This document shows, piece after piece, positions 14,959-46,010 of a stretch of 64,000 nt of DNA (within the stretch, counting starts at the first letter, position 1; each line of letters starts with the position of its first letter). The notes under the pieces were generated by a model that did no database searches, had not been told where the DNA came from, and worked only from the letters and a program-made list of their open reading frames with translations. A program made the position numbers and the translations under genes. The stretch covers positions 17,451-81,450 of the forward strand of contig JAAYYU010000009.1 of assembly GCA_012515235.1 (NCBI GenBank), in the 5' to 3' direction. The stretch is from Candidatus Anammoximicrobium sp. (GTDB lineage Bacteria; Planctomycetota; Planctomycetia; Pirellulales; Pirellulaceae).

Positions 14959-15006
14959 AACCGGGCCGTGGACGAAGCGCCCGACGACTGGGGTCTTTGA
15001 AAGACT

Positions 15007-15103
15007 GGGGTCAGGCTTACAGAATTCAATTTGGGCCGATGGTAACTCCAACCACGTGGCACGACCTTGCTCGGCCCAAATTGAATTCTGTAAGCCTGAC
15101 CCC
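15007..15103. repeat. 97-bp palindromic repeat, copy 1 of 4
   Basis: The arms start with GGGGTCAGGCTTACAGAATT and extend for about 33 bp as perfect inverted repeats around a short unpaired centre. It lies 48 bp after the stop of the PQQ gene and 378 bp from the DGR template repeat. The arm can be stretched by 2 bp (CT/AG) outside the 97-bp unit. Confidence 0.9.
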
Positions 15104-15480
15104 AGAGCGGTACGCATGATGCGCAGATCTGCAGGGTCGAAAATCACGGCAGCGGGCACCAAGCCACCGCCCCGGCGGCCACGCAAGCCGCGACCGCGGC
15201 CAAAGCCGAGCGGCAAAACAAGGTAGACCCCGCACGCCAAATTGGGCCGACGTCTCCGCCGACCGCAGTTCTCCCAAACCCTGGAGACCCAAAAGTGCCC
15301 GCGAGGACGTTCGGCTCGCGCCTACCAGCCCTCGCGGGACGGTTTTGTGATTCGGCCAACCCGCAGCGGACTGCGGATCGACGCCGGACAGCGGTCTGGA
15401 CTCGCACCACGGCACGCCCGTCCGGTCCGTGAACCAGACGGCTCTGGCTGGACGAAGCCCCCAGGGCCTCGCGCGGAGTG

Positions 15481-15615
15481 CTGGAGAAAAAGCCGAAACC
15501 ACCCGAAAACCCATGTTTTGGTTGCGGTTGTCGGGATGGTTCCTGTTCCGGTTGTCGGAGCGCGCATTGACGCTGGGATTGTTCCAGCAGCCGCCACGCA
15601 CAACACGGCCAACGT
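15481..15615 (-). other. Template repeat (TR) of a diversity-generating retroelement
   Basis: These 135 bp, read on the minus strand, translate to an Asn-rich version of the end of the adjacent STAND/FGE protein (...RGGCWNNPSVNARSDNRN, continuing to MGFRVVSAFSP). Aligned with 15913..16047 there is no gap and there are 11 mismatches. All 11 are adenines here in the coding sense (8 A to G, 3 A to T). The AAC/AAT codons sit exactly where the expressed copy differs, as in known DGR templates. Identity stops at 15615 on one side and at 15480 on the other, where G and C differences separate the template end from the variable end. No start codon or domain makes it a gene in its own right. Confidence 0.93.
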
Positions 15616-15693
15616 TCGACCGCCACCCGAGCGGAACACGGCGTCCCGCCAAGTAGACAGTATGGCAGATTGGGAGCACATCGCCACCCAGTA

Positions 15694-15766
15694 CCCCCTG
15701 ATCTTTCCCCTCATCTTTCACACGCATCAACCAGTTCTGAATGAGATTGGGTGAAAGATCAGGGGG
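15694..15766. repeat. Inverted repeat between TR and VR
   Basis: CCCCCTGATCTTTC at 15694..15707 and its exact reverse complement at 15753..15766 form 14-bp arms around 45 nt. A second CATCTTTCAC stretch at 15712 could pair alternatively with the right arm. It is distinct from the 97-bp family. It could be a REP-like element or a structural part of the DGR cassette. Confidence 0.75.
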
Positions 15767-15808
15767 CATTCGTGCCTGGGTTCCCTCCGGCGGCCGGAAC
15801 CTGCTTTT

Positions 15809-15838
15809 CGAAAAATTTTTCGCGCGCCGCTGCGCGGC
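15809..15838 (-). terminator. Hairpin plus A/T palindrome downstream of the STAND gene
   Basis: Read on the minus strand, a GCCGC-gca-GCGGC stem (15826..15838) is followed by the palindrome CGAAAAATTTTTCG (15809..15822). This is about 65 bp after the STAND stop codon and could terminate its transcript. Many DGRs also need a hairpin or cruciform just after the variable repeat, so it may serve retrohoming instead. Between it and the stop lies a strongly purine-biased plus strand (15842..15900) with GTAAA repeated several times. Confidence 0.4.
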
Positions 15839-15901
15839 TTGCGGTAAAGGGGAGAAGGAGTAAAGGAGGAAAAGTGGTAAAAGAGTAAAACAGCCAAAAA
15901 A

Positions 15902-18900
15902 CTACGCGAGTCCTGGAGAAAAAGCCGAAACCACCCGAAAACCCATGTCCCGGTAGCGGTCGTCGGGATGGTTCCCGTCCCGGTAGTCGGAGCGCGCATA
16001 GACGCTGGGATCGCTCCAGCAGCCGCCACGCACAACACGGCCAACGTAGGATTGGCCGGGATACTTTACCTCCACGGCATCTGCGCACCATTCCCAGACG
16101 TTTCCAGCCAGATCCTCCAGTCCCAGCGCCTTCGAGCGGGAACGCGGGAACAGGCCCACCGGCGTCGTCTTCTGGAGTTTCAGTTCGTCCGTGTTGCAGA
16201 TCCCGTCTTGCCCGTCGTTTCCCCACGGGTACACGAGCGCTTGCGGGCCACGGGCCGCGGCTTCCCATTCCAACTCGCTGGGCAGCCGGCCGCCTGCCCA
16301 GTGTGCAAACGCCTCCGCCTCCCAGAACGAAATGCCGACCACCGGCTGATTGGCGCCGTTCCATTTCGTCTCCCGCCGATATTCCGGCTCGCTGACGTTC
16401 CCCTGCTCGTGCCACTGCCAGCCTTCCTCGGACCAACACTCGCGCTGCTCGTAGCCGCCATCCTGCACGAACCGGCGGAACTGGGAATTGGTCACGGGGT
16501 AGCGGGAGATGAGGAACGGCTGCATGACCTTGAACTTCTGCTTTTTGAGCGGCTTGATCGCATATCCGGCCTCGCCCCCGCCCACCGTGTACGTTCCCGC
16601 CGGCACCTGGACCCACGCTCGCGGATCGGTGTGCTCGCGCAGATCCTCGGCGATCCGCGGATCGCCCATTCGTCCCAGGGCCAGTCCCAGTTCGACGCGC
16701 GGCTCGATCGGCGACTCGCGTTCAATGGCGTCCAGGCACAACTGGCGGAATTGCTCGACGTGGCGTGCCTGCAATCCCACGCCGCGTCCGGCCAGGATCT
16801 CCAGGCAATCCGCCACGACGACGGCCAGCGGCAGCGCGTCGAGCGTCAGCGGCTCGATCAGGCTCTCCAGCAGCCGGATACCTTTGTCGGGCAGCGTGTT
16901 GCGGCTCATCAGCGACGTGAACACGAACGACAGCGCGCTGCGCCATTCCTGGCGCACGGCGCGGCGGCGGAAGAAGGCGGCCAGATCGGACTCGCGTTCC
17001 AGAATCAGCTGGGCCGCCAGGAAATCCTGGAACGTGAAGTGATGGAACCCAGCCCGCTTGCCGGGCCGCGGCAGCAGCACGCCGGAACGGGTCAGCAGAT
17101 CGTCGCAAGCCTGGACCGCGCCGCGGAAACCGGGTTCCGTGGCCGGGCTCTGGTCCCGGTATCGCTGGATCATGCGCTCGATCTCCGCCGTCGTGGCCTC
17201 GGCCTGCGGCGTCTCGCGGTCCTCGTCCAGCCCGACGCCGGTGTGCATCCCGTAGGCGACTACACTCAACCGGTTGCGGACCAGCGGAATCTCCTGCTGC
17301 TCGTCCAGATAGCGGTTGTGCAGCACGTTATCCAGGATCCGGTCGTACAACTCGTGCTTGTCCCGCGGCAGCCGCTTGCCCTGGTTGAAGATCACGCACA
17401 GGGCGGTCAGCAGCATGGGGCTGGAGACCAGCGGCGAGACCTCCGCGCGCTCGGCCAGATGAGCCCGCATCTCGGCGGCCCGTTCGGCCCCTTGTTCCGC
17501 GTCCGGCGACAGGGCGTCGAACCAGCGGCCGACCAACAGTCCCTGGAGCGGCGCGTCCAGGTCGGCGATGGTGACGCTGCGCAGTCCCAGTCGCCGGGCC
17601 TCGACCGCGTTCAGGCCGTAGGGCCGGCTGGTGACCAACACGCGGTTGCCCTGGCCGGTCCAGTGCGGCACGGCGTCGGCCAGCCCCTCCAGCAGCATCT
17701 GCCGCGGATGGTACGCGGAGTCGTCCGGGCCCACGCGGATGGGCACTTCGTCAAAGCCGTCCAGCATGATCAGCACTCGGCCGCGCTGCAGGTGGCCGCT
17801 CACACAAGCCCAGGACAGCTGTCCCGGCTGTTTTTCGTCCAGCCAGCGGTGCAGGGCGTCCTCCAATCCGCTCCGCGACAAGCCCCGCCCGCCGGGCGTG
17901 GCCGGCAAGGCGATCCAGAAGTCGCGCAGCCGGATCAGCAGCGGCAGGTGCTCGCGGAGCGGTTCGGGGAACGTCTCGCGGTACCCTTCCGGAGCGGCCG
18001 GTTCGCGGGCCGGCCACTGCCCGGCATTCACGCCGTGCGCCACCCAGCGGCAGAACGTCGATTTCCCCGCCCCCGCGCCGCCCTCCACGTACAACGACGT
18101 TTCGGCCAACTGGCCCATCAGCAATTCCGGCTTCCGCTCCGCCTCGCGGCCCGTCCGCTGCAATGCCGCCAGCGCCTCGGCCTTGCCCGTCGTCCGTCCC
18201 GGCTGCGGACCGTCGGTGCCATCCGTGATCGTCAGCGGCACGTACACCTGATACAGCTGGACCGCCCGCCCCTGCTGGTCCTGCAGCCCCAGCAATTCCA
18301 CCCCGCTGCACTCGCGGGCCAGCCAAGCCCGATACGCGTCGGGGACGGGCGCTGTTTCCGCGGTGGGTCCGGGCACCTCGCCGGCCGGTTGACGCGGGAC
18401 CAGGGCGGCGATGATTTTCCGCAAGTGCGTGTCCACTTGCTCGAAGAACGCTTCGGCCGTGCCTCGCACCTGCTCGTAGGTCGCGTACAAGCCCCGAGTC
18501 TGAACTTCCTCACGGAACTTGCGGACCTGGGCGTACTGGTCCAGATCGATTTCGTCGAGAGCGACCTTGGCGGTCTTAAAGTAAAACAGAATCCACGGTT
18601 TGCCGGTTTTTCCCCAGCGGCGCAGGGCGTCGCGGAATTCCTTCTCCGTGCCCGATCCGTAGCGGCCGGTGGGCGTGCCAAAGCGGCAGGCCAGCATCCC
18701 CAGGTACACGTCATAGTCGGCGGGCGTTTGGGCATCGACGACGTCCTGGGGCCGCGGCCCGATCTGCGGCACGACGTCGTCTTCCCATTTCCAAAGTTCC
18801 AGCCGCACGTCTTGGGCGCGTACGTCGGTGCGGTTGATGCGCTCGACCACCTCGTCCAACACGCGGCGTTCTTCCGCCACGTCGCTGGGCGAGGAAACGA

Positions 18901-18958
18901 AGACGCGGATCAGCCTCACAGCTGTTGGCAAGTTCCTGTGTTTGGCGGTGGAAGTCAC
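15902..18958 (-). CDS. DUF4062-NACHT-FGE STAND NTPase, DGR target protein
   Basis: A 1018-aa protein in three parts. Residues about 15-185 are DUF4062 (begins IRVFVSSPSDVAEERRVL), a TIR/SLOG-like domain often placed before NTPase modules in conflict systems. Residues about 285-560 are a NACHT-type NTPase with Walker A GGAGAGKST (293-301) and Walker B RVLIMLDGFDEVP (394-406). Residues about 790-1018 are an FGE-sulfatase domain (WVQVPAGTYTVGG, PVTNSQFRRFV, GRLPSELEWEAAARG, GNVWEWC, RGGCW). Residues 971-1015 are the diversified segment. STAND proteins sense a ligand through the C-terminus and activate an N-terminal effector; here the sensor surface is the part that varies. A GTG start at 18958 has GAGG 6 nt upstream. 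No signal peptide, so probably cytoplasmic. FGE enzymatic activity is unlikely. Confidence 0.9.
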   Translation of the reverse strand: MTSTAKHRNLPTAVRLIRVFVSSPSDVAEERRVLDEVVERINRTDVRAQDVRLELWKWEDDVVPQIGPRPQDVVDAQTPADYDVYLGMLACRFGTPTGRYGSGTEKEFRDALRRWGKTGKPWILFYFKTAKVALDEIDLDQYAQVRKFREEVQTRGLYATYEQVRGTAEAFFEQVDTHLRKIIAALVPRQPAGEVPGPTAETAPVPDAYRAWLARECSGVELLGLQDQQGRAVQLYQVYVPLTITDGTDGPQPGRTTGKAEALAALQRTGREAERKPELLMGQLAETSLYVEGGAGAGKSTFCRWVAHGVNAGQWPAREPAAPEGYRETFPEPLREHLPLLIRLRDFWIALPATPGGRGLSRSGLEDALHRWLDEKQPGQLSWACVSGHLQRGRVLIMLDGFDEVPIRVGPDDSAYHPRQMLLEGLADAVPHWTGQGNRVLVTSRPYGLNAVEARRLGLRSVTIADLDAPLQGLLVGRWFDALSPDAEQGAERAAEMRAHLAERAEVSPLVSSPMLLTALCVIFNQGKRLPRDKHELYDRILDNVLHNRYLDEQQEIPLVRNRLSVVAYGMHTGVGLDEDRETPQAEATTAEIERMIQRYRDQSPATEPGFRGAVQACDDLLTRSGVLLPRPGKRAGFHHFTFQDFLAAQLILERESDLAAFFRRRAVRQEWRSALSFVFTSLMSRNTLPDKGIRLLESLIEPLTLDALPLAVVVADCLEILAGRGVGLQARHVEQFRQLCLDAIERESPIEPRVELGLALGRMGDPRIAEDLREHTDPRAWVQVPAGTYTVGGGEAGYAIKPLKKQKFKVMQPFLISRYPVTNSQFRRFVQDGGYEQRECWSEEGWQWHEQGNVSEPEYRRETKWNGANQPVVGISFWEAEAFAHWAGGRLPSELEWEAAARGPQALVYPWGNDGQDGICNTDELKLQKTTPVGLFPRSRSKALGLEDLAGNVWEWCADAVEVKYPGQSYVGRVVRGGCWSDPSVYARSDYRDGNHPDDRYRDMGFRVVSAFSPGLA
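15913..16047 (-). other. Variable repeat (VR) of a diversity-generating retroelement
   Basis: The last 135 bp before the stop region of the STAND gene encode residues 971-1015. Relative to the template, ten residues change: N to S, D, Y, Y, D, D, Y, D (eight Asn), R to G and Q to R. These positions lie in the C-terminal loops of the FGE/C-type-lectin fold, where DGRs are known to place variability. The remaining 124 positions are identical to the template, so the last homing event is recent or the pair is kept homogenised. Confidence 0.93.
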
Positions 18959-18978
18959 GGCGGGCCTCGGAGTGAGAT

Positions 18979-19075
18979 GGGGTCAGGCTTACAGAATTCA
19001 ATTTTGGCCGAGCAGGCTCGCTCCACATGGCTGGCCTGACCATCGGCCAAAACTGAATTCTGTAAGCCTGACCCC
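18979..19075. repeat. 97-bp palindromic repeat, copy 2 of 4
   Basis: Same unit as at 15007 (GGGGTCAGGCTTACAGAATT start), with one mismatch between arms (AAATTG against AAACTG). It ends 20 bp upstream of the GTG of the STAND gene and 14 bp after the end of the glycosidase gene, so the STAND promoter must lie in or beyond it. Confidence 0.9.
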
Positions 19076-19089
19076 ATTTCATCCGGCCC

Positions 19090-30066: not shown

Positions 30067-30163
30067 GGGGTCAGGCTTACAGAATTCAATTTCGGCCGAG
30101 CAAGCTCGTACCATCTCGCTGGCGGCACGCTCGGCCGAAATTGAATTCTGTAAGCCTGACCCC
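30067..30163. repeat. 97-bp palindromic repeat, copy 3 of 4
   Basis: Same GGGGTCAGGCTTACAGAATT unit, with near-perfect arms of about 36 bp. It lies between the stops of two convergent genes (SOUL at 30044 and the GH42-like gene at 30182). A bidirectional-terminator role is possible here but would not explain the other copies. Confidence 0.9.
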
Positions 30164-45913: not shown

Positions 45914-46010
45914 GGGGTCAGGCCTACAGAATTCAATTTCGGCCCAGTTTGGTGCCAGCCGCGTCGGATGACTCTGCTCGGCCGAAATTGAATTCTGTAA
46001 GCCTGACCCC
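45914..46010. repeat. 97-bp palindromic repeat, copy 4 of 4
   Basis: Same unit with one difference near the start (GGCCTACAG instead of GGCTTACAG) and some differences at the left arm's inner end. It lies in the promoter interval between two divergent genes (45769 and 46190), so it cannot be only a terminator. Confidence 0.88.

What the first reader, a model, noticed from the sequence alone, without database searches (positions are those of the whole stretch)
15481..16047. Adenine-specific TR/VR pair: a diversity-generating retroelement
Two 135-bp segments on the minus strand (15481..15615 and 15913..16047) align without gaps. All 11 mismatches are adenines in the downstream copy in the coding sense (8 A to G, 3 A to T) out of about 28 adenines, and none is at G, C or T. 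Ten residues change, eight of them Asn codons. Chance mutation would not restrict itself to adenines. The upstream copy is the end of a gene for an FGE-fold protein, the usual DGR target class.
Basis: partly seen in the sequence, partly recalled or inferred. Interest (0 to 1): 0.97.

Follow-up and report, generated by a model that had tools for sequence, protein, structure and literature searches.

The report
Satellite gene-diversifying cassette, helper enzyme elsewhere
A bacterial gene for a likely defence sensor ends in a repeat that differs from a nearby template copy only at adenines, and that template carries a predicted RNA structure conserved across several bacterial phyla but has no mutating enzyme beside it, so the gene is likely rewritten by an enzyme encoded elsewhere in the genome.

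Summary
It is a diversity-generating retroelement (DGR). VR is the 3' end of a DUF4062-NACHT-FGE gene, and the repeats end in an IMH/IMH* difference like that of sibling DGRs. First, no reverse transcriptase (RT) was found within 4 kb upstream or 6 kb downstream of the RNA element, nor on its contig by Pfam RVT_1. The same genome has a DGR RT with its own TR and VR on contig C99, and a bAvd gene on C128 beside another VR of that TR. Second, the TR is followed by a ~190-nt predicted structured RNA that reaches no Rfam 15 cut-off. A model built only from 25 cyanobacterial DGRs finds it once in the 64-kb window, E 8.5e-11; 69 of 80 RT loci from several phyla hold a match, by two models. Best reading: an RT-less satellite DGR, likely served in trans. 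Rival: a recently orphaned, dead DGR. Activity is not shown.

The parts
15902..18958 (-). Target gene, 1018 aa: N-terminal DUF4062, central NACHT, C-terminal FGE/C-type-lectin-like domain holding the VR
   Evidence: Pfam FGE-sulfatase 3.7e-52 (aa 781-1010), NACHT 2.5e-8, DUF4062 2.5e-5; PADLOC candidate-defence model PDC-S60 on aa 14-184, 1.6e-37
15929..16618 (-). FGE/CLec domain (aa 781-1010)
15913..16047 (-). Variable repeat (VR)
   Evidence: 11 of 28 template adenines changed, 0 of 107 non-A sites
15908..15915 (-). IMH at the VR 3' end, CAGGACTC (G at 15912)
   Evidence: Compared with sibling TR/VR pairs
15481..15615 (-). Template repeat (TR)
   Evidence: best other match in the genome is the C99 TR at 70%
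15476..15483 (-). IMH* at the TR 3' end, CAGCACTC (C at 15480)
   Evidence: C in TR versus G or A in VR also at the C99, C368, G024, G107 and G151 C291/C425 DGRs
15293..15484 (-). Conserved RNA element 3' of the TR (structure predicted)
   Evidence: Cyanobacteria-only model R2: E 8.5e-11, the only hit in 64 kb, 2 non-standard pairs; R3, built without the window: E 2.5e-23; 76% identical to the C99 element
15298..15338 (-). Terminal hairpin of the element, with GGUAGG and CGAA in its inner loop
   Evidence: Folds of the window strand and of alignments; the corresponding 13-pair helix has changes on both sides at 11 pairs in 25 cyanobacterial sequences
15616..15912 (-). Spacer between VR and TR; no RT or Avd similarity found; holds a single-copy inverted repeat 15694-15766
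   Evidence: tblastn with four RTs and three Avds; inverted repeat, one copy found in the genome
15005..15105 (.). ~100-bp palindrome of a dispersed family, one edge of the cassette
18973..19081 (.). Second copy of the palindrome, other edge of the cassette

Best explanation
This is a diversity-generating retroelement cassette that keeps its template, its variable target gene and a conserved, predicted template-RNA structure but has no reverse transcriptase found beside it, and it is likely rewritten in trans by the DGR enzyme encoded on another contig of the same genome. Shown here: the adenine-only TR/VR differences, the IMH/IMH* junction, the RNA element found by a model that never saw it, no RT near the locus, and a paralogous DGR in the genome with RT, TR and VR, plus an Avd gene on a further contig beside another VR of that same TR. 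Inferred: the TR is transcribed, its 3' element is bound and used for cDNA priming by the C99 RT with Avd, adenines are miscopied, and the cDNA replaces the VR, changing surface residues of the C-terminal domain. Also inferred: the protein is an NLR-like sensor (DUF4062 front, NACHT switch, variable lectin-like reader) whose recognition face is renewed.
For: A-only mismatches, p 4.8e-9. IMH*/IMH: TR C and VR G or A at C405, C99, C368, G024, G107 and G151 C291/C425. Element: the 3' flank is 76% identical to C99's over ~150 nt; R2 from 25 cyanobacterial sequences alone hits the window at E 8.5e-11; covariation in those 25: 96.4% cells paired versus 85.2% shuffled, 134 double-change cells versus 37.5, 0 of 500 shuffles as high. 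No RT match within 4 kb upstream and 6 kb downstream; none of the 9 RVT_1 matches in the genome lies on this contig. Helper: C99 RT with TR and VR; bAvd on C128 beside a VR that matches the C99 TR. C99 and the window share composition (tetranucleotide r 0.988) and the palindrome family. A second case: G322 C86 has TR, VR (8 of 15 A, 0 of 64 non-A) and element with no RT found in 15.5 kb, while G322 C2 has a like cassette with an RT (matched from aa 58 to 353) and C142/C131 hold RT frames. TR/VR pairs without an intact RT are as clean at non-A sites as pairs with one: 3 of 700 versus 9 of 1753 (my finder favours clean pairs).
Against: No direct evidence of activity, transcription or RT binding. 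C99's TR and element differ from the window's by about a quarter to 30%, and that one RT accepts both is inferred. Between just these two elements there is little covariation: 28 pairs the same, 5 changed on one side, 2 on both, 11 not paired in one of them, and paired columns differ (24 of 92) not much less than unpaired ones (31 of 92). The window element alone folds only modestly better than shuffles (z -1.94, 11 of 200 as stable). G437, 99% complete, has an RT-less TR/VR/element cassette yet no DGR-type RT was found in it, and 2 of 80 non-A sites differ, so RT loss can simply leave a fossil. Two element loci in relatives sit fused to a target gene with no separate TR/VR pair found. That C128 and C99 are one locus is only plausible: both contig ends hold kin repeats, but in opposite orientation. 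Both VRs of the putative helper carry frame-shifting indels, so the helper's own health is uncertain.
Confidence: 0.72

Rival explanations
1. A recently orphaned DGR: the cassette once had its own RT, lost it by deletion, and is now frozen. The clean TR/VR pair only means that little time has passed.
For: RT decay is common among relatives: RT remnants at G151 C291 and C340, G060, G067 and G123 and G000 C46; a G437 cassette with no DGR RT found in the genome.
Against: 0 of 107 non-A sites differ, an upper 95% bound of about 2.8% divergence since the last homing, while the C99 paralogue's target is only 46% identical in protein. No RT remnant was found at the locus. A helper DGR is in the genome.
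Confidence: 0.18
2. An ordinary cis DGR: an RT belongs to this locus in other cells of the population, but this assembly shows a structural variant or a misassembly.
For: A paper on Thiohalocapsa reports structural variants with an intact RT at loci that looked incomplete (PMC10907252, passages). The genome is a 417-contig assembly with 7.57% contamination.
Against: The locus lies inside an 81-kb contig, with no N in the window and further ORFs on both sides.
Confidence: 0.08
3. A plain tandem duplication with ordinary substitutions and no retroelement.
For: Two near copies lie 432 bp apart.
Against: All 11 changes fall on template adenines (p 4.8e-9); IMH/IMH* junction; DGR RNA element.
Confidence: 0.01

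Closest known systems
Thiohalocapsa PB-PSB1 clade 5 DGRs (Dore et al. 2024, PMC10907252; passages read)
   Same: Targets with a NACHT or other STAND NTPase and a C-terminal CLec domain, several DGR loci in one genome, loci whose RT is missing, diversification in trans proposed
   Different: There the trans-served VRs (DGR 4, 5) match the TR of another locus. Here the cassette keeps its own distinct TR, with its own RNA element, and RT and Avd are missing. The passages seen do not describe a conserved TR RNA element.
Bordetella phage BPP-1 DGR (record fetched; mechanism from passages of PMC12875486, and PMC8867640)
   Same: A-specific TR->VR transfer, IMH/IMH*, RT 37% identical to the C99 RT, a structured sequence 3' of the TR that recruits RT-Avd
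   Different: BPP-1 has avd, TR, spacer and RT in one locus, and model R3 finds no match in the 6-kb stretch holding it, so this RNA is not recognisably BPP-1's spacer
Cyanobacterial DGRs (Vallota-Eastman et al. 2020, PMC7517822; passages read)
   Same: Dispersed CLec targets; cyanobacterial DGR loci found here by RT similarity carry the RNA element
   Different: In the passages and term counts seen, no TR RNA structure is described ('secondary structure' and 'hairpin' occur 0 times)
Treponema denticola TvpA (PDB 2y3c)
   Same: Formylglycine-generating-enzyme-type fold over the VR-bearing C-terminus
   Different: The PDB chain is a stand-alone variable protein; here the domain is the end of a DUF4062-NACHT protein

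Membership tests
Diversity-generating retroelement | TR/VR pair differing only at template adenines | tested here: met
   11 of 11 mismatches at A, 0 of 107 non-A sites
Diversity-generating retroelement | IMH in VR versus IMH* in TR at the 3' junction | tested here: met
   CAGGACTC versus CAGCACTC, the same kind of difference in sibling pairs
Diversity-generating retroelement | DGR-type RT in the genome | tested here: met
   C99 RT, 354 aa, IGNQTSQ and YVDD, 37% identical to bRT, with its own A-specific TR/VR
Diversity-generating retroelement (complete cis locus) | RT gene at the same locus | tested here: not met
   No match within 4 kb upstream and 6 kb downstream of the element; no RVT_1 match on contig C405
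Diversity-generating retroelement | Accessory Avd protein | tested here: inconclusive
   None in the window by tblastn; bAvd in the genome at C128 and C46
Diversity-generating retroelement | Structured TR RNA 3' of the template | tested here: met
   R2 and R3 hits; covariation in RT-linked kin; structure is predicted, not probed
Diversity-generating retroelement | Variable protein with a ligand-binding fold (CLec) | tested here: met
Diversity-generating retroelement | Ongoing A-restricted variation in the population | not testable with these tools
   No read sets; metagenome scans capped at 0
NLR-like (STAND) defence sensor | Effector-NTPase-sensor layout | tested here: met
   DUF4062, NACHT, FGE; PDC-S60 N-terminus
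NLR-like (STAND) defence sensor | Defence activity | not testable with these tools
   Needs an experiment

The most novel reading that the evidence does not exclude
A phylum-spanning template-RNA scaffold makes DGRs modular: any locus that carries TR, scaffold and VR is a satellite element that one helper RT-Avd pair rewrites in trans, so genomes run hypermutation networks of several sensors from one enzyme, and RT-less cassettes missed by RT-based surveys are part of them.
Probability: 0.5. Interest if true: 0.82.

Novelty: new variant of a known kind. Interest (0 to 1): 0.66.

Why it matters
A conserved RNA element that marks the template itself gives a handle on DGRs that does not depend on the RT gene, and it exposes cassettes without an RT, of which this window is a clean example. 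It also gives a testable answer to how a DGR enzyme knows its template outside the Bordetella phage model: a covarying RNA structure found in cyanobacterial, planctomycete, acidobacterial and other DGRs. If trans service is real, one enzyme can keep several immune-type sensors variable.

Tried and rejected
Chance duplication: rejected. RT hidden near the locus: none found. Window VR served by the C99 TR: rejected, since that TR is only 70% identical. Other VRs of the window TR in the genome: one search gave only TR, VR, the C99 TR and short matches; one of the short matches, C128:862-885, proved to be a VR of the C99 TR. Inverted repeat 15694-15766 as a MITE in place of the RT: single copy, so not supported. 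Known Rfam family: no window match at gathering score and only an rRNA in 12 other loci; the permissive scan of 15200-15700 gave one chance-level match. BPP-1 spacer as a member: no R3 match. R3 matches only 5 of 10 further DGR or kin loci of relatives and this genome given to it, so the element is not seen in every DGR of this family. C277:63435 similarity to the 3' flank: 30 bp, coding-like, dropped. Foldseek's printed top 50 does not list TvpA; VIA-align on Foldseek's candidates does. The first PDB search used an out-of-frame stretch and found nothing; it was repeated in frame.

Literature: listings show no paper on this RNA element; two key papers (Wu 2018, Handa 2025) are not held, so prior description there is not excluded. 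The term search in Roux 2021 (PMC8144416) returned 0 passages.

Full report
OBSERVATION. The two 135-bp segments align without gaps. All 11 mismatches are adenines in the downstream copy read on the minus strand (8 A>G, 3 A>T); 0 of 40 C, 38 G and 29 T differ. The hypergeometric chance is 4.8e-9. Eight of the ten changed residues are Asn in the template frame.

NO RT HERE, ONE ELSEWHERE. Four DGR RTs used as tblastn queries match nothing within 4 kb upstream and 6 kb downstream of the element at E<=0.01, and none of 9 RVT_1 matches in the genome is on contig C405. Three Avd queries match nothing in the window. Contig C99 carries a 354-aa RT (IGNQTSQ; 37% identical to bRT), a TR right after it, and a second gene homologous to the window's target (46% identical) whose VR differs from that TR at 14 of 23 adenines and 0 other sites over 93 bp, followed by a 2-nt insertion. 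Contig C128 begins with another target of this kind whose VR matches the C99 TR (86%, 1-nt deletion) and then a bAvd gene. Its end shows 77-81% matches to the repeats at the end of C99, in opposite orientation, so one helper DGR split in assembly is plausible but not shown. C99 and the window share tetranucleotide usage (r 0.988; five stretches of other genomes gave -0.416 to 0.949) and a palindrome family absent from those five, so contamination is unlikely to explain C99.

A CONSERVED RNA AFTER THE TEMPLATE. The window's TR 3' flank is 76% identical to C99's over ~150 nt. Six such flanks, two from this genome and one each from four relatives, fold into a common structure (46 pairs, 21 with compensatory changes), giving model R1; R1 holds the window, so its window hit proves nothing. 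A scan of bacterial genomes with RT alignment A4 kept the best 80 loci of 566 relatives. R1 matches 50 of 80 at E<=0.1; 37 of these 50 lie on the RT strand 100-255 nt after the RT end, the other 13 elsewhere, two of them on the other strand. For an independent test I aligned 25 cyanobacterial elements without structure. RNAalifold gave the same architecture and pair counting gave 96.4% paired cells against 85.2% in shuffles and 30.6-46.3% in slid versions, 134 double-change cells against 37.5, with 0 of 500 shuffles as high on all five measures. Relatedness can inflate such counts, but the slid controls keep relatedness. These 25 were picked by R1, so their choice leans on it, though their alignment and fold do not. 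The model from these 25 alone (R2) hits the 64-kb window once, at 15292-15503(-), E 8.5e-11, with 2 non-standard pairs. R2 gave 1 hit in 21 loci fetched mainly as weaker RT matches, and that one is the known G067 element. R3, built from 51 hits without the window, gives E 2.5e-23 and matches 19 of the 30 loci that R1 missed at E<=0.01, so 69 of 80 in all, by two models at different thresholds; it matches 5 of 10 further loci in the same call. The RNA reaches no Rfam 15 gathering score. BPP-1's stretch is not matched. Weak points: the window element alone folds only modestly better than shuffles (z -1.94), and between window and C99 alone covariation is slight.

HOW COMMON IS THE RT-LESS STATE? 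In the window's family R1 hits 10 of 241 genomes (16 matches). In a phylum sample R3 hits 18 of 392 genomes (23 matches). Of those 23 loci, 16 show some RT match within the fetched flanks and 7 do not. Of the 7, four have an A-specific TR/VR pair: the window, G322 C86, G437 C1 and G366 C100, the last near a contig end, so its RT may be cut off. In the other three I found no pair. In the family set, G151 C291 (two VRs) and C340 have clean TR/VR pairs but only C-terminal RT pieces. G024 C439 and G151 C28 have the element fused directly behind a target gene, as recombination between VR and TR would leave, a kind of solo scar (inference).

DOES IT WORK? Non-A sites differ at 3 of 700 in 8 pairs without an intact RT and 9 of 1753 in 19 pairs with an RT frame. 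The finder favours clean pairs, and one RT counted as intact (G322 C2) matches only from residue 58. For the window alone 0 of 107 bounds divergence since the last homing at about 2.8%. This fits either service in trans or a recent loss. G437, with no DGR-type RT detected and 2 of 80 non-A differences, looks like a fossil and shows that the rival is real. I weigh trans service at 0.72 because the window keeps TR, IMH*, element and VR all in order, and the genome holds a matching helper.

KNOWN AND NEW. DGRs, NACHT-CLec targets, RT loss at loci and trans action are all reported (PMC10907252, passages). [quoted passage not shown] New here, as far as the searches show: the cross-phylum covarying TR 3' RNA as a family with its own model, and an RT-less cassette that keeps its own template and that RNA. 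Handa 2025 and Wu 2018 could not be read.

Noticed in passing
L040:14058-14195 and L015:755-889 (C99 and C128): Both VRs of the putative helper DGR carry frame-shifting indels (2-nt insertion, 1-nt deletion) in the VR; both shift the target into the same alternative open frame.
   Followed up: partly
L094 (G060) and L096 (G067): The C-terminal part of the DGR RT lies in loci with a protein-kinase-like stretch: one continuous ORF in L096, on the opposite strand in L094. TR and RNA element are intact behind: a deletion or recombination product, or an assembly artefact.
   Followed up: partly
L115:7811-8008 and L116:7423-7619: RNA element fused directly to the end of NACHT-FGE target genes with no RT match: possible solo scars of VR x TR recombination, like solo LTRs.
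   Followed up: partly
L042 (C46): DGR locus with two VR-like copies whose RT frame joins an RT N-terminus directly to the IGNLTSQ region, as if the catalytic core were deleted; a bAvd match lies near.
   Followed up: partly
window 15005-15105, 18973-19081, 30069-30161, 45916-46008: Dispersed ~100-bp palindrome family (core GGTCAGGCTTACAGAATTCAATTT), four copies in 64 kb, also beside the C99 and C46 DGRs; two copies frame this cassette.
   Followed up: partly
L040:18703-19057: Tandem repeats at the C99 contig end, just upstream of the RT, with 77-81% similarity, inverted, at the start of C128.
   Followed up: partly
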